From Urechis unicinctus (lineage: Eukaryota; Annelida; Polychaeta; Xenopneusta; Urechidae): 64,000 bases of DNA. The DNA lies in the NCBI GenBank assembly GCA_034190875.2, contig CM067356.1, positions 23,154,307 to 23,218,306 of the forward strand. Direction: 5' to 3'. The first letter of the stretch is position 1. Every line of letters starts with the position of its first letter. The translations under genes and the position numbers were made by a program. Below are positions 28,741-64,000 of the stretch, in pieces. The notes beneath the pieces were generated by a model. The model ran no database searches, was not told where the DNA came from, and saw nothing but the letters and a program-made list of their open reading frames with translations.

Positions 28741-31161
28741 ATTCAGGCAATTAATTACAGCTGCCATGACAATAAAGTACTCTCTCCATTATTCAGAAAT
28801 TTATTGACACCGCCTCATTGCTATATTCTACTACTGGGCCTTTTTGGACGAAATTGCTACGGCTTTTTTGTTATCAGGTGATTGAAAGAAATTATAACCT
28901 GTTTCATCAACAGAGCCATCAGATGAGATAGGGGTGACGCATCACATCAGCTGACAAAAACCTGCATGGAGGCTTGTTTTGTGCGAGCCTTTCGTCTACC
29001 TATGTCACACATGCGGTAGAAACGAACATGATATACCACGTGACCAACTGCGCATGTCATTGCATCGTGTGACGTCCAAGTGTATCGTGAATGAATGCGA
29101 GATGTTTAAGTCACTGTGGATGCAGTATAACTCTAGTTCAAATAATCAAAATAACATTCTTGAACGACGTAGAATTCATTTGCAATCGTCTTATATTTGT
29201 ATTCCGGCATATGGAGTTCAGCTCGTCTCCGAGTCCAGACATCTGATTACTTTCACAACCGTGAAGCCATTCAAAGTATCCGAGATCACGTATCACCAAG
29301 TCTGTATACGGTCACACAGGGTCCTAGTTCATGTACGGTAACCATGGTGCGAACTCCGCCACCACCAGTTGCTTGACTCTTGAAACTTACCCAGAAACGT
29401 TAGGTTATGTGCGAGCATTACGTAAAACATACATTTCACATCGATGGACGCTTTACCAAAAACCTTACTACCACCGTGAATTCTATGTTGTCGTCCAAAA
29501 TTCCATAAAATGACTAGTTAGATGACTCTTGATTCAGAATCGACGTGTAAATTCTTAAATATATCCACATTCCAATTTATGAAATATCTGTCTGTAGATA
29601 CTGTCCTAGACAGTTATTATCGGCTTGCGCATGGACGACCACATAAGTGCTGTTGATAATACGAGATGCTAAATTCTGTTATCTAAGCAACCAATTTCAA
29701 GGTTTTTCAATTATTGCGTGAAGCTGAAACTTTCGTTTAGCAGGAGACAAATCTTCATTGAAGACGTTAACTGTTCATGAAGCTCGGCTGCTGTTTATCG
29801 AGCATCATCAACAATTCATGGCAATAATCAAATCTCTGTCAACTCGTGTCAGCAAGAGCGCACATTGGTTATAATGACACTATATGTCGGAATATATGTT
29901 GGTACGAATATGAACTGCAAATGAAAGTTTGATAATCCTCCGATATGATGCATAATGTTATCTAGTGAGGAATTTTTACAAATTCCGTTGATGAACAACA
30001 AATGTATTGAGCGTACGCCAGAAGTAACATCCAATAATATGCCGTTGAAAATAGCCCGAAGTGACAGAGTAATTCACACTAGGGTCCTGATATCATCCTT
30101 ATGCAGAGTCAATGTCCCCTAGCCGGATGGCTGCGGGCGCTGTTTATTGTTACTGATATTCAATAGTCTCGCCATCAGAGAAGCGTAGCGGAACCCCTGG
30201 AGTCTGGGACGCAGACTACTTATGCAGAGGTATTTAGGCAAATTGTGATTTTCATTACTCACAATGTCGGGAATGATAGGTCTCATAAGAGCTACGGAAA
30301 TGCTTTGGTTACCCACCAGCCCATTGATCAATACGCATGTTCATATTGAACTCAACTATTAGAATAAGCTTCGTATAGTAGCGCGATTTAGCTGACTAAC
30401 GGACCTCTTATAAATACAGCTTGTGGATTTGATTTGACTGACTGGTATTTAATGACGACACAGACACACCCACACTCACCTTCCCACCTGGAGAGTTTTC
30501 CCGTCGCCTCCGTTTCATTAGAGCGGTCACGCCTCGTTGAGGAGAGTTCAGAACCAATCACCAAAGCGATGTGTACAGCAACCAACAGTTATGTGTAGCC
30601 ACCAGCCTGACAGGTACAGTCACATCAAGACTTATGCAGCAACCAGTACTGATGATATCAGCGACCTGCAGATATGACACCTGCATACGGATATGTACAA
30701 CAACCTTTTGACAGCGACCCACGGACGTGTACATTAGCCTACATACTTGTACAGATACACAGGGATAAGTTAAATGAACCACACGCAACACAGCTAGGCA
30801 CAGATGTGGACTTATACATTATGTAGCAGAGTACAACCTACACACCTGCCTTGTCCTCAATTGGCGGTTTCGCAAGAACTTGTCCCCGCTCGAAGGTGAT
30901 ATACATATATACGACGTCATGCAGGGCAAGTTAGAACTTAGCTCCGGTCGAACTGTTATATAAATATATACGTCTTGTAGGGCTAGTTAGAATAGAGATT
31001 GAGAAGCAAAACCTTGAAAAACTATGGTGGGAACTGTAGATATTGATTTTCACATATTTAATTGAGGGACGTTGAAATGTCCAACATCCACGTGAACGAT
31101 TGCAGCAAACACTCCCTGACCCGTGCCAGCGAAATACAATTAAATATAATTGAAAAGATTT

Positions 31162-31235
31162 TGGCCAGTGTGGGGATCGAACCCACGACATTCGCGTTAT
31201 TAGCACGACGCTCTAACCAACTGAGCTAACCGGCC
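31162..31235 (-). tRNA. tRNA-Ile (anticodon AAU)
   Basis: This 74-nt cloverleaf read on the minus strand has acceptor stem GGCCGGT/ACTGGCC (one G-U) and D-arm TAGCTCAGTTGGTTAGAGC. The anticodon stem TCGTG/CGCGA encloses loop CTAATAA (anticodon AAT), and the T-arm is GTGGG-TTCGATC-CCCAC. The B box GGTTCGATCCC is intact, there is no intron, and a T4 terminator (plus-strand A run 31153-31156) follows. AAU is the standard eukaryotic Ile wobble anticodon (A34 becomes inosine). It should be functional. Confidence 0.97.
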
Positions 31236-34200
31236 ATATAATGCAAATCAGAATTATATTAAAAATTATGATGCTAATGGTAATAAATGTCGGATATAAC
31301 CCATAATTTATTGATGCCTAAGATCCGAAAGAGAAACGTATGCAAATCATATGAATGCACAGAGAGTTAATTTGTGTCAATTTGGCTGAAGCTGTGGATG
31401 ATATCAACATTTTACAAAGCATGGAATTAATTGGCATATAAGCATGCATGTTTTGAATACTGGTTTTGCTACATTCATCAATACTTCTTACGCGCCATTC
31501 GTCAGACAAATGTATATTAGGTTTTTTTTTCAAGAAAAAGAGCCTAGATTAATATAAGAGCACATTGTGTACGGTACTGTCATTCAAATGGGAAGTTTTA
31601 CTTACGGAACTGTGCAGGACAAATAATCCATTCAGTTAAGAAAATTATCTTTCATAGAACCAACCACCAACCCATCAGAATAGATTTTCCCATCAAGCTT
31701 AGCTCGTACTTAACAACGGCTCTCTTTGAACTTCCACACATAATACACCTGTGGCATCAACACTAACTGTTCTTGCGATCATTCTTTTTACAGTGCATAC
31801 AGCGTTTCACAATAGTGTTTGGGAAACGAGCCAATTAAGCTCTCAACGACTTGGACAGGTGATTTAATGTTTATTTTTGATAAATATACTGACAGTTATC
31901 TTTATGTAATCACTGGTAGAGTAACAGTGTTATTACTGACAGCATCCTGATTTATCTCCGATACTTGTACACTGTGCTTCTTCTGGCGGTTAATCTGCTT
32001 TGATAATTACAAAGGATGTTAATAACTTGTACCATGGTCCGAATATCAGGAGGAAACAGATTGGAAGAGGCAAGCCTTGACGTACTGCACGCTAGGAATT
32101 AATCCTTTAATGCTAGCAATTTGGTGGTTGAGAGACCCCACTTTTTTGTGTGTACCGTTTACTATCAACATCGCAATATTTGTATCAAACCCATGGCCCA
32201 TTACAGTGAATATTTTCTGTATTTGTCCGGCATGAATTGCCATATCTTGATATCATTTATATACCAGTATAACTAGTGCTTAAGTGTCTGTATGGAAATA
32301 TGATATGCTATCTTATTAAGTTGGTATGGAAGACATAAAGTCAGGATTGACAGGCATATATATCTGTTTCGAATTTAATAAATTAATTCAATGAATAGTA
32401 AGTACTTCAAATCTAAACCGCATGTCTGATACTTCAAACGAATGTGAATAATATCATAAGGTACATCATGTACCAACATGAGGATTTACGAAAGCTCATC
32501 AATCAAGAAATTTCACAAAGGAAGATTGTAGATTACAACTGCTGCCTTGTGGTAAATGTACCGGAAGATGGGCACTAATATCAGGGCAGCAGGGCAATTA
32601 TAATCAATGGAAGCATCTTATAACGGTCAATACCAAATCCCATTAAAAAAACCCCGATCACATATGATTATGTGCTGTTGTGTCAGATGAAAGCAGACGA
32701 GTTTAGCCTAACGGTTGATACACTTACAGCACCACCTGGTCTATACTAAGGTGACGTGAATAACTTGTAAATGGTATCATATGCCAGGATTAATTTGTAT
32801 TTAGCGTGCGAGTTCTCTAGGTCTTGTGCGACCATTGATGTCAGTGGACCCCTGCCTGCAGAATACGAATCAAATTATTCACCATGGTAACAGATAATTG
32901 GAAGACAGGATTGTAGTTGGTACTAAGTGATATTCCACAAATTCGATTTCACAATATCGGCTTAGTTCTACCCTCGAAGCAACTCATTTCTGAGCTTTCT
33001 TTAGCTAGGCGTTTAGGAACAATTAAGTTCCGTGCAAAATGTCTGTCATTGACGAACTTACACTTTTATTGAGCAGCATCACAGAGGTGGGAGCGGAAGC
33101 ATCACCTGAAGAATATTGTCAGTTACTACATCGATAATTCCAGATAACAGCCACGTTCCTGTTGGCTAGTGTCATTAGTAATGACGTTGTCGACAAAGGC
33201 CATGAATTGCTACAATAGTTCAGCGCAAATGTCAAGGGCAGTATATTAGTTATATCTTTTTGTAATATATTTATGTACGAGAGTTTTGACAGCAAAAACG
33301 TATTTTATCGGTTTTAATTGTAAAATAATTTCCATCCTATTCATCAGTTATCAATAGACACGTTATAACAGCATCTACTCCGTCATCTGCATAAAAAATA
33401 ACACATCCACGGACGATAATATCATTGACTTCAATACAGCGATATACGTTACGTTGTTGCTACTGAAGTATCAACTGGCCAATAACAGTGTATACTAGAG
33501 CTATGAGTTATTGAAACCTTCTACACGTCATTCACGATGGACACGGTGGTCGGGGTCATTGGTTGGCTAACCTTTTAGTCTCTCTCCATTGAATACAACA
33601 ACGGCAACTGTTATGTCTAATCCCGGTATAGTGGCAATGTTCCTGTTCATTGTGTCTGGGTTTTATTACAATAATATTAAGGAGAACATAAATGTCACAT
33701 TATCACTTAGCGGAAATCAACGTTACGCAATCATAAATGATGTGGACATTGTGGTCTCTCATCGGAGATGTTGTAATTGATGGGGTGGCTCAGTGCAACA
33801 TGCTCCAATCACCGTGTAGCCATTAGAATGATGCATCGAATCAGTCAATTCTAAAGCACAGGAGTGATTGCTGGAACTGCCTCCCTATTGCTGCTAACAC
33901 AATCATCAAACAGCTAGCTTGTCGAAATAGATAAACCAACAACTAATGATTGCTAACATAAGGATGGGCCAGTTATTGCGCATAACAACCCAAAAGCGGA
34001 TCGTCTGTGTGGAATTGACAGTCCGACAGAAGTCACCCACTCTAACTCTTATTGAAACCGACACCATATCTTACAGCCAAGATAAACTTCACGTTATGTA
34101 GTTTTGGGAAATTGGGTATCCAACCACTGGAGCTGGTTGATTGGTATTTAATGACGATCATTATTTTACACTTTTTCTGCGTGTAATTATTGGTAACCGT

Positions 34201-34701: not shown

Positions 34702-36103
34702 CAGCCAGGAAATACTTATCGTACCATTACATACGACAAGTTATAAATGATGTTGGTATTTGTCAGCATTACGTCAGTAACACAACTAATAGAAGAGAAG
34801 GCAATGCAATGTGGCCTTGGTATTGAGTGTTGTTAGCTCCTGGTAATCATCGACATCGAAGTCATCATATTATAGATTAAAGGACTGCATAGAAGTATAG
34901 AGTATATTGTACCAATCAAGGTACACACAATTCAATCACAATTGGCCATTGTTTGTTTACATTCAATATTACGACATTTGCATCGTAAATCATCACTGCA
35001 AACTAGGCAATCTCTGTTTTAGGGTAGACATTCCTTTAAAAATTCTTGAAACATATCCTTCAGTTGTTATTCCAATGGTTACAATTGCCAATCAAATGAG
35101 TAGATTCTTTAACGGAAATTATTGATATGAGGTAAGACGTAAATTCACAACAGCTGACGTAAATGGTTGATTGTATGATATGAGGTCAGATTTTGCGTCA
35201 GTGCAATTGGAAACAAGGTAAGCATATCATGATGGCCAATACCTCATCTAATCAACAGGTAAAAATAGGCATTGAAGGAGGCAAGCTTTGCGCGAGCAAT
35301 TAGATACACAAATATGGAGCGAATGTGTCACGTGACCGGCTGCGTATGGCATCACATTACTCGACGTCTATCCACACGACATATGAATGTGCAGCATATT
35401 AGTGAATCTGGGGTAGAGAGCCACTCCACCGCGAATGATCACACAAGCGATCTTAAACGACTCAAAATTCACTGCGCTCTAGTAGAAGCCGTTGAATTCG
35501 TCCGCCTCTCTTATTGAGTTCCAACATTTCATCCCTTTCACAACTATGATACCAATCGAAATATTTACACGAAATGGAGAACGCCATCACCGCCATATGC
35601 TTGATTTCCCTAACGAACCTGAAAGCATTGGGTTTTGAAGGAGCGGCATGTGGAATATAATCACGCACTGATGGACACATAACAGAAACGGAGGTGGGTA
35701 CTATCTGTCGCTATAAACTGACGTCACCATATTTGTTATGGCCATGCTTGTGGACGATCATTGAGGTCAGGTGGTCTACCGTGGAACACGAATGACATTA
35801 TGAAGCCTTGTCGAATGTGATTAGAAAACTGCATTGTTGTTTGGCCAATGAGTTGCATAATTCCATCATCTAAGCATCCAATTGCAAGGTTTTCATGTAG
35901 CTAACTTTCGTTAACGAGAAACATCTAATAGGTGTGGGAGAGCGCATCATAGGATGAATGGCGTACTGTGACACATCAATGATTCAAGGCAATAACTAGG
36001 TCCCTGCCGGCTCGTGTCTGTAATGACGAACATTGTTTTATATGTCGGACAGCATAATGTTGTAATTCGTGTTGGAAAGGATAGTATATCCCCGCAGTAA
36101 CGG

Positions 36104-36410
36104 ACTGAAGTACAGTTCGTGTGTTGCGGTCCGCCAGTAGAACAGTTTATGCCTTATTTATTACCTCAGTTACATTAGGGGGGTCTTTTTACCCATTCGT
36201 TAAGATGAGTGGATAAATAGATTATACTCACGCTGGATACTAAAGCGGTGACAAGAGATTGTAATGACGCGAAAGCGCTTTGATAATGTCATTCTCATAG
36301 AGAGGTATTTGGCCAAATCATAACTTCATCACATATATGGTTGGGCGAGGTGTGTCGTACAGAAGCAACTGAAATACTTTAAGTACCCATCAGCCAATCA
36401 TAATGAGTTT
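36104..36410. repeat. Repeat module shared with 60390-60700
   Basis: About 300 bp align end to end with 60390-60700, with scattered substitutions and few indels. The shared stretch includes the run from AACAGTTTATGCC through GGTGACAAGAGA to GGTTGGGCGAGGTGTGTCGTA. It is better conserved than the older modules, and lies far from its partner (24 kb). Confidence 0.85.
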
Positions 36411-38859
36411 CTCCATCGAGCTCAATAATTGGATTACGTCATGGCGACTGTCGGTATTCAAGTTGGTTTAACGAACCTCTTTATTAATGTCAGCCGTTGA
36501 GTCATTCATGATTACGACGGTAATGGAATTATTGTTTTTCGACATTTGTATATCTGTTTATGGACCGAGCTACGGCCGATGTTTTGCATTCTCCTGATGA
36601 AATTGCTATGTTATTGTAGATTACATATGTGCGTTATACAGATATCATTATGGGAAACAGTTACGTCGCTTTATAAATTTCTGTGGGCGGCCATCGGGAA
36701 ACCACATATGATGCAGACAGAAACCTGAGCGATCTCGTAACTGAATTAGTTACCATGTGATCTCCATAACCATAGATGTTTAAACTGTATTTAATGACGA
36801 GACATACAAACGCCCACCCACCCACATAATTTGTATGTAATCTCCAGGGTAACCTTAACTCGGACACCGGGGGTAGCGTGGGATGAATAATGGATAGCAG
36901 ACGACTAGTAACTATAGTGTTGTCGCTTTGCTTCCATCCTGATCAATTGACTTATGCGTCTTGCCGGAATACATTAACTAACAAACAATTAACTGGTTGA
37001 GGGTGTCAAGCACTACAACAGCTGTGACAAAGTTTTCACTTAAAGCAGCATTAGTAGCATAACTCATGAGTCAATTTAAGGAAGTATGTGTTGAAACTCA
37101 AATTGTACTCGTCTTCGGCTGCTGGCAGATTACACCTCGAACGTATCTGTTCTATCCCCACTGCAGAATTAATACCCGGTCATCTGAAAAAAACAGCAGC
37201 ATCCAGCGTTACATCCTATACCTTTCATGTTGTGATGCTTGTCATATGACGCTAGTTGACAACCACTACTGTGGCTGCCTAGCGATGTATCAATATGTTG
37301 ATCAAATATGTAAATATTGGCTGTTACAAGTGTGATATTACAGGTGGAGAAATGATTTCAACAAAGAAAGTATATGAGGGATACTTTGTTGATTTACGAC
37401 ATGCGAGCAAAGCTGAGAAATGTGAGTAAATCGATTTCATTTATACTACACCTGTAAGGTAGGAATATATTTATTTATACTATTTCAGAGACGAGTTTTA
37501 AGATGCATAGAATATTGTGCCTTAGTTCATCAAGTGGTCAGAATCGCCATTAATATGATGTTAGGCTTTTAACCAAGTTGCGATTTAAAGTGGTGAATGA
37601 TGTAAGTAGAAAAGACGCACATTGTAATATCGACTGTTCTGTGATACCTCTACCTATGTCGGACATATCAAACTGTGTCGTCCCTTTGATGCTGCTATGG
37701 AGCAATAGCGATCAATAGAAACCTGCTTTAAGGACGTTATATCACATCCAATCAACAAATAGGCATTGGGCATTGGATTAGATCCTGCTCTGTTAAATGT
37801 ACCCCGCCGAGGTTACCCCACAAACTCGAGTACCAGTCGTGTCAGATGGGGGATGTGTGAGCATGATGTACGGTTCGTTTACTTCTATATAAGGCAAACA
37901 TGACATCTTGAGTGTTACGCTCAACGTGTGAACCAGGCATGGCAGATCGAGTACCCATAAGCATCTGGTTGGGCTCAGTCTCAGCCTTGGATCATCACAG
38001 TCATTAATTGGCGGATCAGAGCCCTGTTGGGGGCAGGGGCGGGGTGTCATAACTCAGGTGTGGATCATTTATCTCTTAAGGATTGAGCAGCATAATAAAC
38101 CATTGGCAATGCTAGCACATTACATATCATCAATAGACATATGCGGCGAATAAGTTATAACCTCTTTCCTGGCCCAAAGTGATACGCGTTGCTGTCAAAC
38201 TCTTCCAATTGAAAGCCTATTTATTGTGCCTCTCTTATGAACTATGCCTACAATGCATCACACTGTTAACGTCCAAATGCAAGGCATTAATTGTTATGTA
38301 TGCCACTGTGTCGCTGGTCACACTTATGCATCTTATGAATATGCTTGTGTTTGGCTGAGCGGATAGGATATGACGGATTTCGTCGCTTATTTGCATTCGT
38401 GAAGACACGTATATAATGGAAGAGTACAAATGAAATATCTAACCTAGTGGGCAAGTCGCGCCGCGTGTGGCGGCCAGTGAATGCTTGCCCAGATGATGCA
38501 CTTTTCATGATTGTTCATGATTGTCAAGATGGGGACAGTCATATAGCTTCATCGCAGCCAACCAACAGAGCTATCCTGTAATTAGCCCTAGATAAGCTTG
38601 TTGGCATTTTTGTATTCCCTTATCTTAAACAACTCTGTTCGATTGATATGTTTTAGCATATTTCTTGATTACTAACACAAACATGCGTGTCCTTCAGTGT
38701 CGAAACAGAGCAATGTACTGAGCATATCACTATCTGTTATGAAGATAGCTGTCAGTGCTCATGGTGTACGTTCTATTGATGCGTTAGATCGGAAAGATAA
38801 AATAATGCAAAGCATATTATTTCATATACGATCCAACTGTGCCAATTTGGCTGCAACTT

Positions 38860-39331
38860 TGCATGACACCAGGCATGTCACAAAACATACAATTAATTGA
38901 CTTATATGCTTCATTCAACAGAAGCTTTGAATACTGGTTCTGCATCATCATCAATACCCCATACGCACCATTCGTAAGACAATATATATATGTTTGTATA
39001 TGATTGAAACTCACGAATATTGACAGCTATATCTATGTAATCACTGGTTGAGTGTCAAGATTGGCATCCTCTATCCACACGACGATATCGGATACATACA
39101 GACGAAGCTTCTCGTCACAAGACGCCACCAACACCCTTCTTACTACACTCACCATGTACCAGGAGTAAACAAAGAACGCGTAAGAAAGAGGAAAGCCTTG
39201 TGCTGGCAATTTGACGCTTGAGCTACCCACTTACATCTAATACCGTTCATTTTCAATGTCATAATAAACCTATTGGAAGACAGGAATTCAATTGGTACCG
39301 GGCGATTTTCCATTTAAACTGACTTCATATC
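38860..39331. repeat. Repeat module shared with 60779-61451 and 31400-32160
   Basis: Matches include GCATGACACCAGGCATGT at both 38860 and 60779 and the run containing CACGACGATATCGGATACA. The 60.8-kb copy retains about 200 bp absent here, part of which (AATCAAATTATT) is also in the 31-33 kb copy near 32870. So this copy has lost it. Confidence 0.8.
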
Positions 39332-41848
39332 TCACTGTGTATAGGGTTAAATGGTTCATCAACGCTTGTCTGCTAAATGGTGTCTACAAAGTGGAGTATT
39401 TATGGAGAGATACGAATGACCTGATTGAGCAGCCGCCTTCTAGGATCAACTGATACAAAAGTGAAATCCACGTGGACGAAAATGAACAAGATGGTGGGAA
39501 ATATACAAATGTGAACGATTACCCTAAGGCATGTCACCACCAGCCGATTGACTGTACCAGGCCATTCCAAGTCTCTAGGGTCTCTAGTTTAGGTGAAATG
39601 CATCGACACGAGTCGCATCTTACGTCATGCAGGATGATACAGTTGGCTAACCCCGAACCCACGTGGGGGTTTATTCAAAAGGCCTATCACTGACGAAGCC
39701 AAATAGTCAGTGAGCGGGATCTAAGCATTCTAAATGAAAGCGTAGCCTGTCAGTTGATATTTCAGTATTGATCCAATTATTTCAAATAATCTGATCAATA
39801 GACAAACAAAACAGACAACTGTCGTCTCCAACAGGCCGAGTTCCACAATAACACGGATATCCACAGATGATAATATATTTCCCACTAGGAGAAATGCATT
39901 AGAATTAACACTTCATTACAACAAGGCATGTTTTATTGTGGCTACAGAAATGCTTTATTTACCCATAAAGCAATCAGGATACATTTTGCCATTGATCTCC
40001 ATTATCGCATTAAGCTTTAAGAGTAATGGTTTAGCAGTACCGTTATTGAGTCACTCACGGTAATAGGAATAGTGGCTTTCTAAGCTCTTTATCTTTATCG
40101 ATTGTATACAGCAACGGTAACTGTTTCGTATTAACCCGGCATTATGGCTATGTGTCTGTCTGTTCGTTGTATCTGGCTTTTATCCTGGCAGCATTAAGGA
40201 GAACAAAAACAACTCATCATATCTTACCGAGAGTGGCCGTTAGAGAACACGTGGTGTTTGCAGAAAGAAGTCAGGGCGGTCTCTTCAGAGGTATAGTTAT
40301 TAATGGGATGGATCACTGTCACTGCTCACAGTCACTGTGTGTCTATAGGTATCACGCATCTACTCGGAGAGTTTCTAACACGATCATTATGCAGTTGTGT
40401 CCTGACGGACAAGAGAACCTAGCAGCAAATGATTGCTAATATAAAGACGCCAAGCACCACTACAGTAGTGATACATTGTTATCCCAATGTAACAAAATAA
40501 ACTTGACTCAAACATTCATGTGCAGCCACCACATTAAAACCCACAATCGCCTCGTTCATTGCGGCTGCTTCCACACAGATTACCTCCTGACAATCCCTGT
40601 TCCCCACGTGCACAGCGAAACCTACATTTCGACCGACTGACTCATATTGAGCGGCTCTTCGTAGGCAATGATGATTGTGAGATTAAACCAAATTACATCC
40701 AGCAATAATTGATCTCATGCACAGCCCAATTCATAATTTAGTATCAATTCGGTTGCACATATTTTGTTTCTTATAAAAATGCACCCTCTGGGGTAATTAA
40801 TGCATGTTTATACAGAGAAGTCGCTTAGTATGGCACCATAACTAAATATGTAGTCTGTAATGCGTCTATAATGTGGATGCTTAGTAAGAGCATTCCAGAA
40901 AAAACGCACTGGTATTGATACATATATATTTTGGTTTTGCATCTGATAAGCAAAATGTAAAGATTGCATATCAGGTTCTTCAACAGCAATGACCAAGTGA
41001 GAGACATCTCAAATTCACATTGTTGATTGTATGATATGTATATCCGAATAATTACGACTAGACTTCACATATCGGATTGTGCCTAAGGGTAATATACATT
41101 ATCTCATAGTGTTCAATAGAACATCCAATCAACAAGTAGCCATAAACATTGAATGTTTGTTCTTTGTCTGCGTTTAGAATGCTTCCAACGTGTAATTGAT
41201 GGAATATGCAATTTCATCGCCCATTACCTTATTGTCAAACTTCCAACGAATGTTTTGATGATATTTATTACTGCTGTCATGAAAATAAAGTGCTTACTGC
41301 ATTATTGATACGGTCGTATAGCTGTTGTTATAAGACATAACTAATGCCTCGTCATATAAAAAACAAAACCTGTAGCAAAAACTGACTGCGCATGAGTTAG
41401 TTGATAAGATCACGAACTCCATCAGCAGACAACTGATGCACGCAAACAATTGGATCATTGTCTAATTTGTAACAGCATTTGCAAATAAATAAAATGATTC
41501 GTTAGGGAAATGTAATGTTTTACAACCATTAGTAGAACCATTTCGAAAGCTACAGCAGAGTCATTTTGCCGACCCTTTTAAATGATCAGATAAAAATATT
41601 GAAATATCGTTAGATAAAACAGCCAATCAGTAGTGATTAGCGAATAAAGTTGTGCAATAGCACAATAATAACATCATCCCATGGAGAGGTATTCATCCGA
41701 ATCGCAATTTCTTTTATAAATGGATTACGCCCTATTGACTGTGTTGATATTCAGTTGACCAACGATTTGTTTGGGTGAACATCAGCTATCGACGGTAATG
41801 GGATAATCTGGAAATTGATGAAGAAATTGCAGTCGGTTTGTATTATCC
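39332..41848. repeat. Segmental duplication, proximal copy (partner 61452-64000)
   Basis: From the TCACTGTGTATAGGG run to the window-end sequence, this 2.5-kb block is nearly identical to 61452-64000. Differences are isolated base changes and small indels, such as a 39-nt insertion in the distal copy after 62494. The offset is about 22.1 kb. No gene is inside; the short frames that are shared owe their similarity to the recent duplication. Confidence 0.93.
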
Positions 41849-43467: not shown

Positions 43468-43541
43468 TGGCCAGTGTGGGGGTCGAACCCACGACATTCG
43501 CGTTATTAGCACGACGCTCTAACCAACTGAGCTAACCGGCC
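43468..43541 (-). tRNA. tRNA-Ile (anticodon AAU), second copy
   Basis: Differs from the 31162-31235 gene by a single base in the T-loop (GGTTCGACCCC instead of GGTTCGATCCC), still within the B-box consensus. The cloverleaf, the AAT anticodon loop CTAATAA and the 74-nt length are the same. A seven-T terminator follows immediately (plus-strand A run 43460-43466). Short flanking similarity (ATCCACGTGAA about 60-75 bases from the 3' end in both) suggests the gene moved with its surroundings. Confidence 0.97.
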
Positions 43542-43611
43542 ATCTGGTTTGCCATTATACATACATTATTCTTATTCGCCTTGATGAGTCTGTAAACATG
43601 ACTTCCTACCT

Positions 43612-45313: not shown

Positions 45314-45420
45314 GATCAATGAACTGCGTGGATATGATGAATGCGCCGTGTGTCAGGTCAATATTAATGCTTGCAACATTTCTGACCCGCAAAGCAAGCT
45401 ACGGGAGCAATATATCATAT
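45314..45420. repeat. Direct repeat with 49671-49768
   Basis: Both blocks share ATGAACTGCGTGGA, a diverged middle and a CGGGAGC-ATATATCATA end. They are about 4.36 kb apart in the same orientation. Confidence 0.8.

Positions 45421-50098: not shown

Positions 50099-50102
<4 letters not shown>

Positions 50103-50189
<87 letters not shown>
50103..50189. repeat. (TA)n microsatellite
   Basis: Uninterrupted TA dinucleotide tract of about 86 bp. Tyr-Ile frames on both strands are artefacts. Confidence 0.98.
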
Positions 50190-50192
<3 letters not shown>

Positions 50193-53100: not shown

Positions 53101-54727
53101 TAGATAACCACAAGTAGCAGACAAAGGTGATATCGACGCTTTCATAGTCATGTTAAATGCCCGCTTATGGAATCGGGGAGAAATCGCATTTATTGTATGC
53201 AACAGCACACATGAAGTACAATTTGTACTTCATGTGACTTCAAGCTGGTGTTTACCGCGTTTTATGAATTGTTAACAATATCCCATATATGTGCATGCAC
53301 TGCACAGCAGGGTCGTATTTATATGGAATTAAATGACACGATGGCACCACTCATCAAACGTTATGCGTATCGTTCGATGCTCATAGCTGATGCATTGCCG
53401 TCTAATTTTACCTTAATTAAGTCATGCAATAATCGTTATTGCATAACGATACCATTTTGGGCTGGATTATTGATTATAAAAGAAAATAGCGTCACCGAAG
53501 AGCTTGGTCGTCGTATAAAACGTGTACCTAATTGTACAACTTCAATACACGACTGTAATAATGGAGGACATTGCCCACGATATCTTCCATCTCCTGGATC
53601 TACTTTAACAGGGAGTGCGCAATGGCCTACAAGATAAGCAGGCATTAATTCATTTGTTTTATTGGAAATTGGGGCAGATTATTATTGCCAGAATCCAAAT
53701 CGAAATATATATGACTAAACTCTCTTACGCAAATACATGTAATCTTCCATCAAATATAGAAAGTGATTTCCAAACATAACGCACCGTAGACGATCACCAT
53801 CACATGAACAGCAATATTCAATTCCCTTGTCGATGGCTTACATGCTGAGTACATAGTTATTGGTATGGACAAGACGGCGAATTCGCTTGTGTCTTACGAA
53901 GCTTGAAATGAATGCGCAGACATTCATTCAATTTCAAATTGATGTGTACAAAAGGGTTATAGAATCAATACTTGCTAGCCGTGTGATAGCCACATTCCAT
54001 TTGCGTATTTCGCTAGATTGCAATGATATAACTCAATATGAATCAGAAAGTATCCCCAAGATCGCTTTGTAGGCACAAATTGTGATGGATGATCAGCAGC
54101 GTTCAATCGTCTCATCACATGGATTCAGGCAATAACGATTCCTAATTTATACCTGAAGCAAAATATCATGGCGTGATATATATGATGATGATAACGCCAT
54201 GCTGCATTGATATATCCGTAACTGTACATGTAGACAACCTGATGCATCACCAACAGATACATGATATAAGAAGGTGTCAAAATAAACGTAGGCGGATACT
54301 TCATTCATTATGGCCGACATATAAGGAATAACCATTCACAGAGAGTTATGAACTAGTATTTTACTGACGAATTCCAACACAGAGATTGTGCCTGACACCA
54401 TTCGTTATATGCATCTAAGGACCAAAGCAGAACCGTCGTCAAAATAGTTCGCTATATGCACCAATACATTTTCAAAACAATGTGGTTGTGGTTTATCTGC
54501 TGAACTTCTTCAGTGGTATTGGATGCGGAAATAGAAAGTCAATTCACTTGCCTGTATCTGAAGTGACTCGCATAGAAAGGCTTCGACCAAATCATTGAAT
54601 GGATCTTCACATGTTGTGTTTCATCACATCATACACCAATGAGGCATAGCAGTGGGCATGTTTATTAGTGTCTAAGACCACAGTAGTCTCTTAATAACGA
54701 TACATCATAACTCAAAATGTGCCCTAA

Positions 54728-55236
54728 ATTAGGCTCTACTGGCTCAATGTGTGTCATAAAGCTGGCCCTACTCACTCAAGTTGTGTTCTGATTTAAGCGC
54801 TCCTGTCTCTAGTCATATTCTTATGTAGACTCTTCATTCTATCGACATCTAACAATAGGCCCTCCATACTCAAGTTATGTTCCGAGGTAGGGACTGCTCA
54901 CTCTAATTGCTTGTTTCTGTAGAAACCCTCTTTACTCAAATACTTTTTCAAAGCATGCACTCCTCATTCAAGTAACATTCTAAAGTAGGCTATATTTAGT
55001 CTATTGGTGTCTTAAAGTGTGCCCTTCTCACATCTCACAAATAATGTTTTTAAGTAGGCTCTCCTCATTTGAGCTATGTCTATGAGACTGTCTTTACTCA
55101 AGTACTGTTCTAAAGCATGCACTCCTAACTTAAGTCATACTCTAAAGTTAGTACTTCTCGTTCAAGCCATGTTTCAAAGCAGGTTTCCACTTCTAACTCA
55201 GGCCACATTCTACGGTGGGCACTCTTGTCACATTGT
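54728..55236. repeat. Degenerate ~32-bp minisatellite, about 16 units
   Basis: Consecutive units of 29-36 bases follow a loose consensus: G(T/C)AGGC-CTCCTCACTCAAG then TNATGTTCTAAA. Clear unit boundaries are the repeated TCTAAAG or TCAAAG joins, for example GCATGCACTCCT near 54952 and 55117. Units have diverged strongly, so the array is old. A short stretch before 54728 may be further degraded units. The tract is CT-rich on this strand and has no long open frame. Confidence 0.85.
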
Positions 55237-56818
55237 TTATTATTGAGGGGCATCTTCCTGAAAACTACTCATTTCGCTCTGTACGAAAAATACGGCATCG
55301 GCAGGGAAATGGTTGTACTGTGTATTGAGCATTATCACAATCCTTGATGAGGCGTAAGGGAATCATAAGCAATGTGGAGAGAAGCCTGGGGGGTATATTC
55401 ACACACTGTCTTATGATGACTCATCGTCACTCACAATAACGATTAAATCCCTACTTTATATCTTCCTATCTGAAGGATTGCCATCATGATTAAGTAGGGT
55501 TCTCAGTAAGATTTAACAAATATATCGACATCATCGGGCGTATTCTATGATCATTGAAAGGGTAACTATTTCAAACTCAGTTATTGATTTTCATAAATGT
55601 ACGGCAGCAGAGGTCTGTATACTGATTGTCTGGTCAAATATATTAAAATGTGGCGTGTAGTAAACCCTAAATATTACGTACCGCTGCACTATCAGTAAGA
55701 GGGCAACACACCACACACCATAGCCGAACTCATCTCGCTCCCATCAATCAATTTAATGACAGCATCTAGGCAAACCGTTTTGAGGATTGATGGATTATCT
55801 CCCAGAAACCCAAGAAGGTATTTTCCAGATAATCCTTCCAGAATTCAATAACTTCAAGCAGCTTTCCCCGTCATGTATGTGTATGGACGTAGTGAGTTTT
55901 ATGATTGTTCATCCCATGTAATAAACGTTCCTCACCCAAAGGCTTTCTATATAATCAATGACCAGAAGATTTTACTACTGGGTGACTGGCCGTATGATTA
56001 ATTCGTCTGTTTATTGCGGCAGGTATACTCCAGCCAATTGAACGAGATTATAATATCATGGACACTTATTTATTAATATCTACGTGTTTTAATAACGGCG
56101 ACAACGATGGTTTTTCTCGTTTTTTCGAACACTATGTCCGGGGGTGACTTTCTGTTCGCCACGTCAAAGTCACACAAACAGCCCCAGCAAGCGGCCCCGT
56201 TGTATACTGGCAGAGTGTATTCGATCAGTAACTCGTTTTGCAAGCGGCACGAATCTTGGTTGGTACTGATTATTTCTATCCATTATGTAGGAAAGTTCTG
56301 CCTACCAATGTGAACCTAAGAAGAAGACGTTTGGTTAGGAAAAACGAACAACAGGTGTAAGAAAGAGGTAGTGTCGACGAAAGCCCCTGGAACGGGTCAG
56401 ATTTCGATACCGATGGGCGACGACTTGAAACGTTACTGTTGTGTTCTTTTGTACAACGTGAAATTAAGGCGATTATTCGAGAGATGTGTGCGAGGCGATA
56501 CATGCGCGACATTGAAAACGTGTTCTTACTCAAACTTTATCATTTATAACATTTTGCCTCACACCAGCTGTCTCATATACTGAGTCCAAGGGCAGTTTGT
56601 GGTAAGAAACGAAACATTCAAGGAGCGAGTGTGTACCTTAGATTTATTGTGGTTGTGCCAATGTTACCAATATGTATGCGCTGTTCACCGAGCAGCTACT
56701 ACAGAAATATAAGAATAAATTCGACCACCTCTACCCATGTCTCAAGTAAATACAATGATTGTTCATTCAACTTGAATATATCTAAGTTTTTTATAAGCAT
56801 AACAATGGGAAAAGTCAT

Positions 56819-56848
56819 CCAATGGTAATGGTAATGGTAATGGTAATA
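56819..56848. repeat. (GGTAAT)n microsatellite
   Basis: Four to five copies of the hexamer AATGGT. Confidence 0.95.
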
Positions 56849-57596
56849 TACATTTGCCCTGTAAATGCACAACATACCCATTGGAAACTAAACCTTGTCC
56901 AGGACCAGAGTATCAGCTATATAATGTGTACAATATGAGACTAATCTGATCATGGCAGTGTTTAACAATCAGCATTTGGTAGGTGTAAGGTGAGTTCCAA
57001 AGGGAGCAATGAAAAAAAAGAGAATAATGCCTCACGTTAACACAGAAATATTTCTCAACATCCTTTGAAGGGGAACAGTGATTTGATAAGTGCACAAGGT
57101 GTAAAACAAATCATCGGCAGTACGGCTTGGGCCTCTGACGTCACCAAAATGTGCGCCATAACATGGCCCAACGAAGAGAGAGTTTACTTTTCCCAGAGTT
57201 TTAAACATTAAATATGGCTTAATTATTTTCATAAATCGGGCCAATTTCGCTCAAACCGATGCGCAACAAGATTAATGACTGGAGTAGCACTTTAATGAGA
57301 GAACAGAATGCCCATCGTATATTTTGTTAAGGCATCTTATTGATTCAGATACCATTGTGTCAGCCCACTCATATAAGTAACACCTAACATGCCAATTTGT
57401 GTTTCCCAACGCGATGGGCGAGCCTCGCAAATGACAGTGATAAAGCTTTCCTCAGAAATGCAAGTGTATATGTTTTGCAAAACACCTAATCTGTTTCTGC
57501 ACACGCGATATAACGTGGCACTGTCTCTCCAGAGGATGCAATTTGGGTCTTCTATAAATAGTCAATAAGAGATTGAGAAACTTGGTGAATTATGAA

Positions 57597-57730
57597 AATG
57601 GATGATGATGATAAAAATGAAGAAGATGATTATGATAATGCTCACGAGGGCATTGTTGATGGCGATGATGGTGATATTCGTGGAGATAATAATCATGATA
57701 GTGGCAATGATGGCGATGGTGGTGATAAGA
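57597..57730. repeat. GAT/GGT-rich imperfect trinucleotide repeat
   Basis: Imperfect GATGATGAT/GGCGATGGT sequence over about 130 bp. The minus-strand His-rich frame and any plus-strand Asp-rich reading come from the repeat. Confidence 0.9.
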
Positions 57731-59329
57731 CTTATTGCAGTTTATGATAACTGTAATTATTATGAACCCATGGCCACATAAGTTAAACTGTAGACTGGAG
57801 AACGACAAGCCGGGATTCAAACGGGCCGATTCATTTTCAAATTGTTTCTTCAATTCTTGTGACACCATTGGGCAGGGTATCACTAATTGTGCATGGCGTT
57901 TGGAGGTTTATATTTCTAAAATGGGCCAAATATGTGGAAATTTGTATGTGTCCTGTGTGTAGCACAAGCGGTTTGGTTAAGATCTGTTAGTTGAATGAGC
58001 AACTTAAGCACGTCGTTGTCCTGCTATTACGCATCTTATTCACCATTCGTATAGTAGTCACAACGTTCAATCGACCATCTAAGGACTAGTTAGAGAAATA
58101 TGTAGTCACGATATGAATGCAGACTAAAACGCTTCCAGAACTACCTCATGCTACACGTACAACCATTCTGAACCTAAAACGTATTCAATACATTCAATGT
58201 GATTGTCTCTCTCTAAATGTTTAAGGGCGCTGCAGCTTTATCGGCATCATGCACATAACTAGAGACACGTGCGCATGTTAAGGCAATGCACATTAAAGAA
58301 AAACCTAACGTTTCGTTTTAAGCCTCTTGAGGATGTGTCGCATGCCCAGTTAGCACAATCTTGTGCATATTTCATGGTTGATCTCACTCTGGCAAAACAA
58401 TGACACACAAACACACGAAAGCTTATGCATAATAAATTGGTCAGCATTCAACATCATAATCACATTGCGGTCTGTTTAGCAGTTCAAGTGTACTGCTTGG
58501 CACTGATGTCAACACCGTTTCCAGCCCCGCATATCGTTAAAGGCTTATCAACTTGCCATGAAGAACACATCTATATCATTAATATACTTCTGGTGTTTCT
58601 CCATGTGCAGCTCTTGTAATATGATTATCATGGTTACATATTACAGGCAAAGATGGCTTATAATTGGAAAATGGTAATGCAGTACCAGTCGATCACCCAA
58701 AACGCGTGCTTAATCAGAAAGTTAAATGACAGCCAATCATTGCATTTAAACATGAAGCTACAGACAACATCTGCCAATCTATATTTCAGACACCAAAATG
58801 AGTACCTGGAATTTTCTGTGATGATTTTCAGTTGTGTATTTGATTAGTGTTTTAGAATTATGTCTTAATGTTGCAACACAGTACCACGACTGACCACAAA
58901 TATAATATCGACATGTACAACTGCATAGTTGAATTAGACATACACTGAATTAATTTGAATATCGTTTGCGAAATGTTATTTCATATCCTTGATATGTGCA
59001 TATGTCGTATGGATGATGATATAAAAGTTGTGAAATTGTCAATATACAACATAGTACATGTGACATCTGCTGAACGCCATATTCATTAACCCGATCAATG
59101 CCAATGGTGATATGCTCCACTTGTCCTCTGGTGCCGTGAGGCATGCCCTGATGCTAATAGGACACCCTCTATCCCATCACACAGAATGTAGTTATTTATG
59201 TTTGCTATCTGTTTACATCAATAAAATGCTGTTAGTTTTGGAAAGCAAATATCTGCTTTTGTAAAACTCGATTCAATGATATTAACTGCCATTGCTGAAA
59301 TGCTCTTGCTGGGAAAATGCCATCGAACT

Positions 59330-61451
59330 CAATTATTGGATTAAGCTTAATCGAGTTGTGGATAAATATAACCGTATTTGATTAACGCTTGTTGAGTCAT
59401 GCACGATATTGACGGTAATGAGATTAGTCTATTGCGATGAATATGGGTTTTATCCCAAAAACATTAAGGAGTACAAAATACGGCATATTATCACTTACCA
59501 TGACTGGACGCTAGGAAATCACACATGATGTGATAGAAGCCAGAGTTGTCTCATCACAGATGGTGTAATTGATGGTACAGCTCACAGTGTCAGTTCTCAG
59601 AAACCTTGTATCCATTAAGACCATACATCGAATATGACAATTAGATAGAAAAGAACACATCACTATGGATGGATGCCTTAGCTTCTACTATCATCAACTG
59701 TCCGGATGATAAGAAAACAACTATAAGCTGAAATAAAGATGTCAAGCACCACTATGGGGATGATATATTGCCAACCTAAAACCACATTAATGACATGACT
59801 CATGAGTACATTTGTACCCAGCGAGTCGATGAGTGTGATAGTTATCACACGTTACAAGCAAAAAATATCTCATCATTGCGGCTGCTTCAATATAGATTAC
59901 AACCTGAATTCCTAGCTATACACCCGGAGTGATATCGATTACCCGACTGACGGCACCCCCATTAATTGTATCTTCACTCAGCGTCACATCTTCAGGTTAT
60001 GGCATTTGTGAAACGAAACCTGTTGATGGTTCAATGGCGATCAGATACACAATAATTGGCTGTTATCTCTATGTTATTGACAGTCGAGTAACACTATTAG
60101 TTACGACAGTGTCCTTCAGTCACTTGGCCATCTTGAATGCGCGCTAATTCTGTTATTGTCTCTGAAATAAATGGTCTTATTTACAACCCAGACGATTCTC
60201 AATGGATGCGCCATGTTTCTTTGCCTAACACGTATGAAAAACGGTGTTTCTGCTTACCTGGAAAATGTGTTGCATTTCAAATTATGAATGAATCCTTTTT
60301 ACCAACCCACGCTATTGACGGGCCATATCGTGCTGATAATGAATGGGGGAGGCAGGGGGTATAGCTAACTAGATTTAGTATTATAACACAGCCTGAAGTA
60401 CAATGTGTTTATTGCGGACCGTCAGTGGAACAGTTTATGCCTTATGTATTAATTCAGATACATTAGGGAAGTCTTTTTACCCACTCGTCAAGATGAATAG
60501 ATAAATAGATTATACTCACGCTGGATACTAACGCGGTGACAAGAGACTGTAATGACGCGAAAGCACTTTGATAATGTCATTCTCATAGAGAGGTACTTGA
60601 CTAAATCATAACTTCATCATATATATGGTTGGGCGAGGTGTGTCGTATAGAAGCAACTGAAATGCTTTAAGAACCCATCAACCAATCATGATGAGTTTCC
60701 CCAGGACGAGTATTTCAGCAATGGCAGTTGATATCATTGAATCGAATTTTACAAAAGCAGATATTTGCGTTCTAAAACTGCATGACACCAGGCATGTAAC
60801 AAAACATACAATTAATTGACTTATATGCTTCATTCAACAGAAGCTTTGAATTCTGATTCTGTATCCTCATCAATACATCATACGCACCATTCGTCAGACA
60901 AAGTATATATGTTTGTATATGATTGAAACTCACGAATATTGACAGCTATATCTCTGTAATCACTGGTAAAGTATCAAGATTAGCATCCTACATCCACACG
61001 ACGATGTCGGATACATACAGACGAAGCTACTTGTTACAAGACGCCACCAACACCTTTGTTACTACACGCACCATGTACCAGGAGTAAACAAAGAATGCGT
61101 AAGAAAGAGATAAGCCTTGTCGTGCGGCACGCTATCCTTTGGTTCTGGCAATTTGATCTACCCACTTACATATGATGCCGTTCATTTTCAATATCATAAT
61201 AATCGTATCAACGCTATGACGCATAAAGTTAAATGATTGGCCAACATAGACTGCCCTTTCCTAGTGTCAATCATAAACCAGTACAGCTAGTGAACAAATG
61301 TTCTTTTTATGAGACTATGAATCAAATTATTTAGAAGTGTCACTGAAAATTGGTACCAGGAGATTTTCCAGTTGAACGGATTTCTTCATATCTGCTGAAA
61401 TCTGTCATGAAGCAAATGCTAGCTTAGTTATGCTCAATACTTAAGGTAAGG
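59330..61451. repeat. Further repeat modules of the 28.7-43.2 kb family
   Basis: Sequence near 59390-59420 (GTTGAGTCATGCAC then GACGGTAATGAG) matches 36496-36526 and 40046 onward. Positions 59440-59770 match 33570-33970 and 40090-40445. The TGCGGCTGCTTC stretch near 59878 matches 40560 and 62716. Positions 60390-60700 match 36104-36410, and 60779 onward matches 38860 onward. The region is therefore a mosaic of the same modules. Confidence 0.75.
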
Positions 61452-64000
61452 CTCACTGTGTATAGGGTTAAATGGTTCATCAACGCTTGTCTGCTAAATA
61501 GTGTCTACAAAGTGGGGTATTTATGAAGAGATACGAATGACGTGAATGAGCAGCCGCGTTCTAGGATCAAATGATACAAAAGTGAAATCCACGTGGACGA
61601 AAATGAACAAGATGGTGGAAAATATACAAATGCAAACGATTACCCTAGGGCATGTCACCACCAGCCGATTGTACCAGGCCATTCCGGCCTCTCGTTTAGG
61701 TGAAATCCAGCGACACGAGTCGCACCAACGGCATACAACATGCTCCCTATAAGTCGCATCTTACGACATGCAGAATGATACAGTTGTCTAACCCCGGACC
61801 CACATGGGGGTTCATTCAAAAGGCCTGTCACTCACGAAGCAAAATCTTCAGTGAGCGGCATCTAAGCATTCTCAATGAAAGCATAGCCTGTCAGTTGATA
61901 CTTCAGTATTTATCCAATTATTTCAAATAATCTGATCAATAGACAAACAAAACAGACAACAGGCCGAGTTCCACAATAACACGGATATCCACAGATGATA
62001 ATATATTTCCCACTAGGAGAAATTCATTAGAATTAACACTTCATTACAACAAGGCATGTTTTATTGTGGCTACAGAAATGCTTTATTTACCCATAAAGCA
62101 ATCATGATACATTTTGCCATTGATCTCCATTATCGCATTAAGCTTTAAGAGTAATGGTTTAGCAGTACCGTTATTGAGTCACTCACGGTGATAGGAATAG
62201 TGACTTTCTAAGCTCTTTATCTTTATCGATTGCATACAGCAACTGTAACTGTTTCGTATTAACCCGGCATTATGGCTATGTGTCTGTTCGTTATATCTGG
62301 CTTTTATCCTGGCAGCATTGAGGAGAACAAAAACGTCTCATCATAACTTACCGAGAGTGCCCGTTAGAGAACACGTGGTGTTTGCAGAAAGAAGTCAGGG
62401 CGGTCTTTCCAGAGGTATAGTTATTAATGGGATGGATCACTGTCACTGCTCACAGTCACTGTGTGTCTATAGGTATCACGCATCTACTCGGAGAACATGC
62501 AGCGCCGACCGATTCATATGGCCATGTTTCCTTGTTTCTAACACGATCATGACGCAGTTGCGTCCGGACGGACAAGAGAACCTAGCAGCAAATGATTGCT
62601 AATATAAAGACGCCAAGCACCACTACAGTAGTGATACATTGTTATCTCAATACAACAAAATAAACCTTCATGTGTAGCCACCACATTTAAACCCACAATC
62701 GCCTCGTTCAGTGCGGCTGCTTCCACACAGATTACCTCCTGACAATCCCTGTTCCTCACGTGCACAGCGAAACCTACATTTCGACCGACTGACTCATATT
62801 GAGCGGCTCTTCGTAGGCAATGATGATTGTGAGATTAAACCAAATTACATCCAGCAATAATTGATCGCATACACAACCCAATTCATAACTTAGTATCAAT
62901 TTGGTTGCACATATTTTGTTTCTTATATAAATGCACACTCTGGGGTAATTCATGCATGTTTATACAGAGAAGTCGCTTAGTATGGCACCATAACTAAATA
63001 TGTAGTCTGTAATGCGTCTATAATGTGGATGCTTAGTAAGAGCATTCCAGAAAAAACGCACTGGTATTGATACATATATATTTTGGTTTTGCATCTGATA
63101 AGCAAAATGTAAAGATTGCATATCAGGTTCTTCAACAGCAATGACCAAGTGAGAGACATCTCAAATTCACATTGATGATTGTATGATATGTATATCCGAA
63201 TAATTACGACTAGACTTCACATATCGGATTGTGCCTAAGGGTAATATACATTATCTCATAGTGTTCAATACCACATCCAATCAACAAGTAGCCATAAACA
63301 TTGAATGTTTGTTCTTTGTCTGCGTTTAGAATGCTTCCACCTTGTAATTGATGGAATATGCAATTTCATCGCCCATTACCTTATTGTCAAACTTCCAACG
63401 AATGTTTTGATGATATTTATTACTGCTGTCATGAAAATAAAGTGCTTACTGCATTATTGATACGGTCGTATAGCTGTTGTTATAAGACATAACTAATGCC
63501 TCGTCATATAAAAAACATAACTTGTAGCAAAAACTGACTGAGCATGAGGGAGTTGATAAGATCACGAACTCCATCAGCAGACAACTGATGCACGCAAACA
63601 ATTGGATCATTGTGTAATTTGTAACAGCATTTGCAAATAAATAAAATGATTCGTTAGGGAAATGTAATGTTTTACAACCATTGGTAGAACCATTTCGAAA
63701 GCTACAGCAGAGTCATTTTGCCGACCCTTTTAAATGATCAGATAAAAATATTGAAATATCGTTAGATAAAACAGCCAATCAGTAGTTATTAGCGAATGAA
63801 GTTGTGCAATAGCACAATAAAAACATCATCCCATGGAGAGGTATTCATCCGAATCGCAATTTCTTTTATAAATGGATTACGCCCTATTGACTGTGTTGAT
63901 ATTCAGTTGACCAACGATTTGTTTGGGTGAACATCAGCTATCGACGGTAATGGGATAATCTGGAAATTGATGAAGAAATTGCAGTCGGTTTGTATTATCC
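61452..64000. repeat. Segmental duplication, distal copy, truncated by window end
   Basis: Near-identical to 39332-41848 and still matching at the last base, so the duplication continues beyond 64000. Relative to the proximal copy it has a 39-nt insertion after 62494 and several small indels. No supported gene is inside. Confidence 0.93.

What the first reader, a model, noticed from the sequence alone, without database searches (positions are those of the whole stretch)
28744..64000. A large non-coding repeat family of unknown nature
At least eight sets of modules (100-400 bp) recur in similar order across 28.7-43.2 kb and again at 59.3-64 kb, with units of about 6 kb and internal spacings of 2-3.5 kb. 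No module shows a transposase, reverse transcriptase, LTR or terminal inverted repeat that I can see. Possibilities include a long-unit satellite, a non-autonomous giant element, or a duplicated long non-coding RNA locus. This is the part of the window least explained by standard feature types.
Basis: partly seen in the sequence, partly recalled or inferred. Interest (0 to 1): 0.75.

Follow-up and report, generated by a model that had tools for sequence, protein, structure and literature searches.

The report
Ancient locus-bound nested tandem duplications
The repeats are real: one stretch of apparently non-coding DNA has been copied next to itself over and over, at several scales and over a long time, at one place on one animal chromosome; it is an unusually old and layered local duplication, but no new kind of mobile element or gene was found in it.

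Summary
Inner copies differ by about 0.5-0.9 substitutions per site. They are nested in larger, younger tandem units (about 17-26 kb, 83-99% identical) that include the apparently empty 45.1-59.3 kb stretch and run past the window end. A second cluster lies about 408 kb away, inverted, on the same contig. In the three whole-genome searches that were scored completely, all 39 matches lie at C15:22.69-23.46 Mb; short dispersed repeats embedded in the units occur elsewhere. No protein domain reaches cut-off in six frames, substitutions show no codon phase, and only tRNA matches Rfam. So this is neither a dispersed transposon nor a detectable gene family. Best reading: a locus-restricted, hierarchical segmental duplication grown by unequal exchange and conversion, largely neutral, carrying tRNA-Ile genes that stay 75/76 identical while their flanks are down to 41-46%. 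A transcribed or regulatory role is not excluded; a 0.2-kb island near 48.2-48.4 kb is more conserved.

The parts
28931..32302 (+). Unit 1: a 28931-29180, b 29181-29639, c 29637-29910, d 30217-30413, (e weak 30443-30573), tRNA-Ile, g 31277-31537, f 31796-32302
   Evidence: module HMMs; pairwise matches
31161..31236 (-). tRNA-Ile (AAT)
   Evidence: ARAGORN; Rfam RF00005 66.6 bits
32518..34339 (+). Unit 2: a, c, d, e, f
35065..37322 (+). Unit 3: a, b, c, d, e, f
   Evidence: genome search (5 matches including itself, all C15:22.74-23.30 Mb)
37595..39266 (+). Unit 4 (variant): a, h, g, f, with no tRNA found by ARAGORN
39663..40700 (+). Unit 4b: c, d, e, f
   Evidence: genome search (10 matches including itself, all C15:22.74-23.30 Mb)
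40936..42249 (+). Unit 5: a, d, e
42780..45090 (+). Unit 6 (variant): a, h, tRNA-Ile, g, f
43467..43542 (-). tRNA-Ile (AAT), 75/76 identical to the first; flanks 66/144 and 39/95 identical
45091..59317 (+). K segment of the outer unit; copies (pieces mostly 85-98% identical) start at about 70.9, 88.3 and 107.4 kb in window coordinates, and inverted at C15:22.72-22.757 Mb; no Pfam domain at cut-off; holds a small e fragment at 55,330
48190..48430 (.). More conserved island inside K: 87.5-97.9% in 10 other copies; 100-base windows at 48,150-48,399 show 3-5% divergence from the outlying loci L033-L037, median over windows 16%
59382..62850 (+). Further units: e f | d g f | c d e f; 38,860-39,273 and 39,331-41,848 match 60,779-61,208 and 61,452-64,000 at 87% and 92%, and 36,105-36,415 matches 60,393-60,703 at 90% with the 2.4 kb between missing
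63088..64000 (+). Next unit: a, d, e; continues past the window end

Best explanation
This is a locus-restricted, hierarchical tandem (segmental) duplication of intergenic DNA in an animal genome. Step 1 (inferred): a roughly 3-kb intergenic block carrying a tRNA-Ile gene was tandemly duplicated long ago by unequal exchange, and its copies drifted to about 0.5-0.9 substitutions per site. Step 2 (pattern shown, mechanism inferred): blocks that joined some old units to a 14-kb neighbouring segment (K) were themselves tandemly duplicated, giving outer units of about 17-26 kb whose aligned pieces are 83-99% alike. Step 3 (pattern shown): a related cluster lies about 408 kb away on the same contig in inverted orientation. 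A tract of about 7 kb between the clusters is 99.5% identical beside tracts at 95-97%, which suggests inter-cluster gene conversion or a recent exchange. The sequence as a whole appears non-coding and mostly neutral; the tRNA genes are the exception.
For: Overwhelmingly direct repeats within the window, against a reversed-sequence control. Ordered modules, + in the window's cluster and - in the other, 0 null hits. Divergence tiers: K2P 0.49-0.92 among 10 pairs of module e, 0.55-0.74 among 3 pairs of c, 0.51-0.60 for 7 of 8 reported pairs of d, the eighth being 0.09; outer copies 83-99%. Window 32.76-40.10 kb against the inverted cluster has 37 differences in 6,991 compared bases (34,257-34,595 not printed, so not counted); neighbouring tracts have 48/996 (left) and 40/1,496, then 40/2,976 (right), summed. 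Locus restriction: 5 of 5 matches, 10 of 10, 24 of 24, all on C15:22.69-23.46 Mb; (40 of 297 candidates scored) every match above 150 bits is there. Non-coding: no Pfam family at its cut-off in six frames of 29.60-34.45 and 34.75-64.00 kb, while the same method finds EF-Tu exons at 15-25 kb. Median N/S ratio 1.09 over the 510 ORFs that had at least 3 aligned copies and 8 changes. No codon phase in 2,348 variable sites nor in 2,549 sites against outlying loci. tRNA 75/76 against flanks 66/144 and 39/95.
Against: Not every repeat is direct: one inverted pair in the window (59,234 against 60,779), a 191-base inverted piece of K near 50.4-50.6 kb, and inverted e and f modules at 23.301 Mb. Non-coding modules still alignable at K2P 0.5-0.9 are old for wholly neutral DNA; some constraint could have helped. 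One island near 48.19-48.43 kb is more conserved than most of K. ORF 43,615-43,920 (-) has a sub-cut-off match to a restriction-endonuclease-like domain (E 5e-5, 23.9 bits against 27) and an N/S ratio of 0.38, though open in only 1 of 3 copies. Very short exons, or exons under positive selection, would escape the phase and Pfam tests. No RNA data and no second species were available. The genome search does not see very divergent copies.
Confidence: 0.77

Rival explanations
1. A cluster of duplicated long non-coding RNA or regulatory (boundary/enhancer) units, in which a short promoter-like core such as the 48.2-48.4 kb island is under selection while the rest drifts, as described for the DXZ4 macrosatellite.
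For: Island 48.19-48.43 kb is 87.5-97.9% identical in 10 other copies and all 24 genome matches to 48.10-48.46 kb lie at this locus. [quoted passage not shown]
Against: No RNA data. In L036 the island (87.5%, 184 aligned bases) is not clearly better than its surroundings. Module e gives no supported consensus RNA fold: -1.76 kcal/mol with an unfavourable covariation term of +2.32. CTCF-like motifs (motif recalled) are not clearly enriched: 30 in the whole window against 20.8 +/- 4.9 expected, 8 of 100 shuffles reach 30. Islands were sought only in K, not in modules a-h.
Confidence: 0.12
2. A cluster of fast-evolving protein genes (small secreted or immune proteins) with exons too short or too divergent to be recognised, comparable to the sea urchin Sp185/333 clusters.
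For: Nested duplications and simple repeats resemble such clusters (abstract of PMC5103432). A few ORFs have a low N/S ratio, e.g. 47,786-48,010 (-), ratio 0.26, open in 5 of 7 copies, and 43,615-43,920 (-), 0.38, open in 1 of 3.
Against: No Pfam domain at cut-off; no codon phase; 22% of 453 and 17% of 359 indels are multiples of three; median N/S 1.09, so some low outliers among 510 ORFs are expected. The ATG frame in the island is frameshifted or stopped early in at least 2 of 11 copies.
Confidence: 0.06
3. A degenerate non-autonomous transposable element family that happened to accumulate in tandem here.
For: Short dispersed repeats do sit inside the units (about 39.34-39.64, 45.8-46.2 and 30.1-30.2 kb).
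Against: The units themselves were not found elsewhere (15 of 15 matches at this locus, at the sensitivity of that search); one module orientation per cluster; no transposon domain.
Confidence: 0.04

Closest known systems
Clustered tandem/inverted segmental duplications (low-copy repeats)
   Same: Kilobase-scale copies at about 83-99% identity, tandem plus inverted clusters on one chromosome, conversion-like tract, mosaic unit borders
   Different: An additional much older inner layer (about 48-65% identity) of 3-kb units, and no protein-coding gene detected in the units
Macrosatellites such as DXZ4 (3-kb units, human X)
   Same: Apparently non-coding tandem units of about 3 kb at a single locus
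   Different: Inner units are highly divergent and interrupted by K segments, and there are two clusters; DXZ4 is described as an uninterrupted array (abstract)
Sp185/333 immune gene clusters of the sea urchin
   Same: Local segmental duplications with simple repeats in clusters (abstract)
   Different: Those clusters are made of genes (abstract); here none was detected in the units
Tandem tRNA gene arrays (Entamoeba; PMC2652664, seen only in the search listing with the start of its abstract)
   Same: tRNA genes recur at a similar place within tandem units
   Different: Only 2 tRNA genes among the 11 module groups of the window, and the units are not homogeneous

Membership tests
Segmental duplication / low-copy repeat cluster | Copies >=1 kb at >=90% identity, low copy number, same locus or chromosome | tested here: met
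   Many outer pieces of >=1 kb at 90-99% on C15; other pieces fall to 83-90%
Macrosatellite | Tandem kilobase units at a single locus | tested here: met
   the locus holds two clusters about 408 kb apart
Macrosatellite | Homogenised, near-identical units | tested here: not met
   Inner units K2P about 0.5-0.9 for modules c, d, e, with one d pair at 0.09
Macrosatellite | Copy-number polymorphism between individuals | not testable with these tools
   one genome only
Macrosatellite (DXZ4-like) | CTCF sites in each unit | tested here: inconclusive
   30 matches with up to 2 mismatches against 20.8 expected over the whole window, 8 of 100 shuffles reach 30; motif recalled
Transposable element family | Dispersed copies on several chromosomes | tested here: not met
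   39 of 39 matches (three of them the window itself) at C15:22.69-23.46 Mb, at the sensitivity of that search
Transposable element family | Transposase / reverse transcriptase / other element domain | tested here: not met
   a non-autonomous element would also lack these
Protein gene family cluster | Conserved reading frames with a codon pattern of change | tested here: not met
   short exons could be missed
Duplicated lncRNA locus | Transcription of the units | not testable with these tools
   no expression data
Duplicated structured RNA | Conserved fold with compensatory changes | tested here: inconclusive
   module e only, one strand: not supported; the other modules not folded; Rfam finds only tRNA
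Tandem tRNA array | A tRNA gene in each unit | tested here: not met
   2 tRNA-Ile genes in the window, a third at about 65.6 kb, one further copy in the second cluster seen by profile but not by ARAGORN

The most novel reading that the evidence does not exclude
A long-lived, locus-bound family of non-coding units whose copies are kept by selection on a short core (such as the 48.2-48.4 kb island) that acts as promoter, boundary or small-RNA source, with inverted clusters about 408 kb apart that could also promote recurrent inversion of the gene-bearing segment between them.
Probability: 0.1. Interest if true: 0.6.

Novelty: new member of a known kind. Interest (0 to 1): 0.3.

Why it matters
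It shows, in one animal locus, duplication at several nested scales and ages (about 0.5%, 1-17% and about 35-52% difference) without a detectable protein gene driving it. That makes it a usable natural record of how tandem duplications grow, convert and decay. The inverted clusters flanking about 408 kb could mediate inversion polymorphism, which can be tested directly. If the conserved core proves transcribed, it would be a case of a non-coding array retained by selection.

Tried and rejected
Transposon or giant element: disfavoured by locus restriction and orientation and by lack of domains. Protein gene family: no domain at cut-off, no codon phase, no excess of multiple-of-three indels; one ORF with an apparent 'VSGFYY' string had no match in solved structures at E<=1. 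Known RNAs: only tRNA. Shared RNA fold for module e: not supported; modules f and d were aligned but not folded. CTCF-site array: inconclusive. Short peptide in the conserved island: broken in at least 2 of 11 copies. Pfam matches below cut-off treated as chance: in the frames, SAP (16.0 bits against 23.9) and PvuRts1I-like_N (19.1 against 27; 23.9 against 27, E 5e-5, for ORF 43,615-43,920); in the ORFs also DUF7562, Hint_2 and Zn_ribbon_IFT122_C. The divergence script stopped with an error after modules c, d and e, so K2P for the other modules was not obtained; one search failed on a missing file and was rerun. Literature: four searches; two papers opened at abstract and outline only; the rest seen as listings. 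No claim is made that this locus is absent from print.
Full report
WHERE IT IS. The window is C15:23,154,307-23,218,306 (+) of an unnamed 1.19-Gb genome in 926 contigs. It is an animal by its genes, which is my inference: upstream frames match GH31 (in L028), SKICH, a 5-phosphatase-type domain (Exo_endo_phos2), EF-Tu and ubiE/COQ5 by Pfam above cut-off, and a TPR below cut-off; names such as INPP5K and AIP are by eye only. The species was not identified.

CHECKING THE OBSERVATION. A more permissive run gives 75 pairs at E<=1. At >=40 bits there are 45 direct and 1 inverted real pairs (whole window; 42 of the 45 wholly in the interval by the list) and 4 control hits against the reversed sequence, reported as 2 when halved; all four start in the AT microsatellite at 34.4-34.7 kb. 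The repeats are therefore not chance, and they are overwhelmingly in one orientation.

ANATOMY, INNER LAYER. Tiled iterative profile searches (E-values inflated because copies enter the profile) led to eight module models a-h. Scanned on both clusters and on their reversed sequences, they gave 46 hits from 28,931 to the window end, all +, and no hit on reversed sequence. Many hits are the seeds themselves, so one search shows order and spacing rather than independent significance. My reading of the order, in 11 groups: a b c d (e) tRNA g f | a c d e f | a b c d e f | a h g f | c d e f | a d e | a h tRNA g f | [K, with a small e fragment] | e f | d g f | c d e f | a d e. Successive 'a' modules from 28.9 to 42.8 kb start 3.6, 2.5, 2.5, 3.3 and 1.8 kb apart. 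Divergence among copies is high: K2P 0.49-0.92 for 10 pairs of e, 0.55-0.74 for 3 pairs of c, 0.51-0.60 for 7 of 8 reported pairs of d and 0.09 for the eighth (pairs with 50 or fewer aligned sites dropped; the script failed before the other modules).

ANATOMY, OUTER LAYER. With flanking sequence fetched on both sides, 39.3-44.7 kb matches 61.5-66.8 kb at 95%, and pieces of 45.0-59.8 kb (segment K) recur from about 70.9, 88.3 and 107.4 kb at mostly 85-98%. A further 6.4-kb pair (107.4-113.8 against 115.1-121.5 kb) is 98.9% identical. A second cluster at C15:22.687-22.775 Mb holds K and the modules in the opposite orientation (only its part from 22.72 Mb was fetched and scanned for modules). Its modules end at 22,774,698, about 408 kb from the first module of the window. 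More divergent K copies lie at 23.367-23.460 Mb (69-90%, the longer pieces 74-87%; pieces of 69-95%), and a c-d-e group at 23.302 Mb with inverted e and f beside it. Between the clusters, window 32.76-40.10 kb has 37 differences in 6,991 compared bases (34,257-34,595 not printed, so not counted), while tracts to the left have 48/996 and to the right 40/1,496 and then 40/2,976 (summed). I read this as conversion or recent exchange; an assembly effect is not excluded.

GENOME-WIDE DISTRIBUTION. Three searches were scored completely. Unit 3 (35.2-37.8 kb): 5 matches, all C15:22.74-23.30 Mb. Units 4b-5 (39.65-42.3 kb): 10 matches, all C15:22.74-23.30 Mb. K island (48.10-48.46 kb): 24 matches, all C15:22.687-23.459 Mb. 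Three were capped at 40 scored candidates. K 45.76-49.64 kb: 80 matches from 40 of 297 candidates; all above 150 bits are on C15:22.687-23.460 Mb, and those outside the locus fall in two short stretches of the query, about 45.8-46.2 kb and a GAT-rich repeat near 47.65-47.72 kb. In the other two, dispersed repeats took most or all of the scored places (39,336-39,636, 40 of 1,218 scored; about 30.09-30.23 kb, 40 of 996 scored), so for unit 1 absence elsewhere is not shown. The first look of this search misses very divergent copies: most inner copies within the locus were not reported by it either. 'Not dispersed' thus holds only for copies of about 70% identity or better.

CODING TESTS. Six-frame Pfam scans with X at stops over 29.60-34.45 and 34.75-64.00 kb reached no family cut-off; 28.74-29.60 kb was covered only by one ORF, and 34.45-34.75 kb, mainly the AT array, not at all. 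The nearest miss is ORF 43,615-43,920 (-), PvuRts1I-like_N, 23.9 bits against 27 and E 5e-5; it is open in 1 of 3 copies with N/S ratio 0.38. The same frame method on 15.0-24.9 kb recovers EF-Tu exons. The 510 ORFs with at least 3 aligned copies and 8 changes have a median N/S ratio of 1.09. Variable sites show no codon phase among near copies: 2,348 sites, best chi-square 8.7, 8.3 and 7.9 in windows of 90, 150 and 240 bases, against mean maxima of 9.8, 11.5 and 11.5 in 60 jittered controls. Against the outlying loci L033-L037 there are 2,549 sites, best 8.3 and 11.1 against control 95% points of 12.4 and 13.0 (the 11.1 lies above the control mean of 9.1). Indels are multiples of three in 22% of 453 and 17% of 359 cases. 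Short or positively selected exons could escape.

RNA TESTS. Rfam gives only the two tRNA matches, at gathering threshold and at E<=1. Module e folds with -1.76 kcal/mol and an unfavourable covariation term; 12 of 39 predicted pairs have a sequence with a compensatory change, which I do not regard as support at this divergence. The two tRNA-Ile genes are 75/76 identical while their flanks are 66/144 and 39/95 identical. A third copy lies at about 65.6 kb, and one in the second cluster is found by profile but not by ARAGORN. The position of the tRNA before module g in two units suggests it was in the ancestral unit (inference). This contrast is the best internal evidence that the bulk of the unit has drifted with little constraint.

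A POSSIBLE EXCEPTION. Against the outlying loci, the 100-base windows covering 48,150-48,399 have 3-5% divergence against a median of 16%. The island 48.19-48.43 kb is 87.5-97.9% identical in 10 other copies. Copy by copy the effect is clear in L034, present over 48.25-48.40 kb in L035, and weak in L036. Its 32-codon ATG frame is frameshifted or stopped early in at least 2 of 11 copies, so a peptide is unlikely. A promoter or RNA core is possible; local conversion or a low mutation rate would also explain it.

VERDICT. The thing is an old, nested, locus-bound segmental/tandem duplication of intergenic DNA with tRNA-Ile passengers. Unequal crossing-over and gene conversion are inferred from the pattern, not observed. 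Interest is modest: the depth and layering are unusual, but each ingredient is known.

Noticed in passing
window 39336-39636: Short dispersed repeat, 35 further scored places across the genome at 71-82% identity (40 of 1,218 candidates scored); aligned to other copies
   Followed up: partly
window about 30090-30230: Roughly 113-bp high-copy dispersed repeat, 39 further scored places at 86-95% identity (40 of 996 candidates scored)
   Followed up: no
window about 45790-46225: Roughly 430-bp old dispersed repeat (mostly 65-71% identity, on several contigs) inside K; neighbouring bases are absent from the K copies in L034 and L035
   Followed up: no
window 48190-48430: Island of raised conservation in K copies, found only at this locus
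   Followed up: partly
window 32757-40095 against C15:22.764-22.771 Mb (-): About 99.5% identical inverted tract between clusters about 408 kb apart, beside 95-97% tracts
   Followed up: partly
window 1-28000 and L028:6479-8290: Ordinary genes: GH31 frame of 604 aa, SKICH and 5-phosphatase-type domain, TPR (below cut-off), EF-Tu, COQ5
   Followed up: partly
C15 about 22777300-22782320 (L020-L021): Run of N of about 5 kb close to the edge of the inverted cluster; gap or withheld stretch, not pursued
   Followed up: no
window 54695-55257: Diverged short tandem copies (offsets of 155-325 bp) inside K
   Followed up: no
window 43615-43920 (-): 102-codon open frame with a sub-cut-off PvuRts1I-like_N match (E 5e-5) and N/S 0.38, open in 1 of 3 copies
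   Followed up: no
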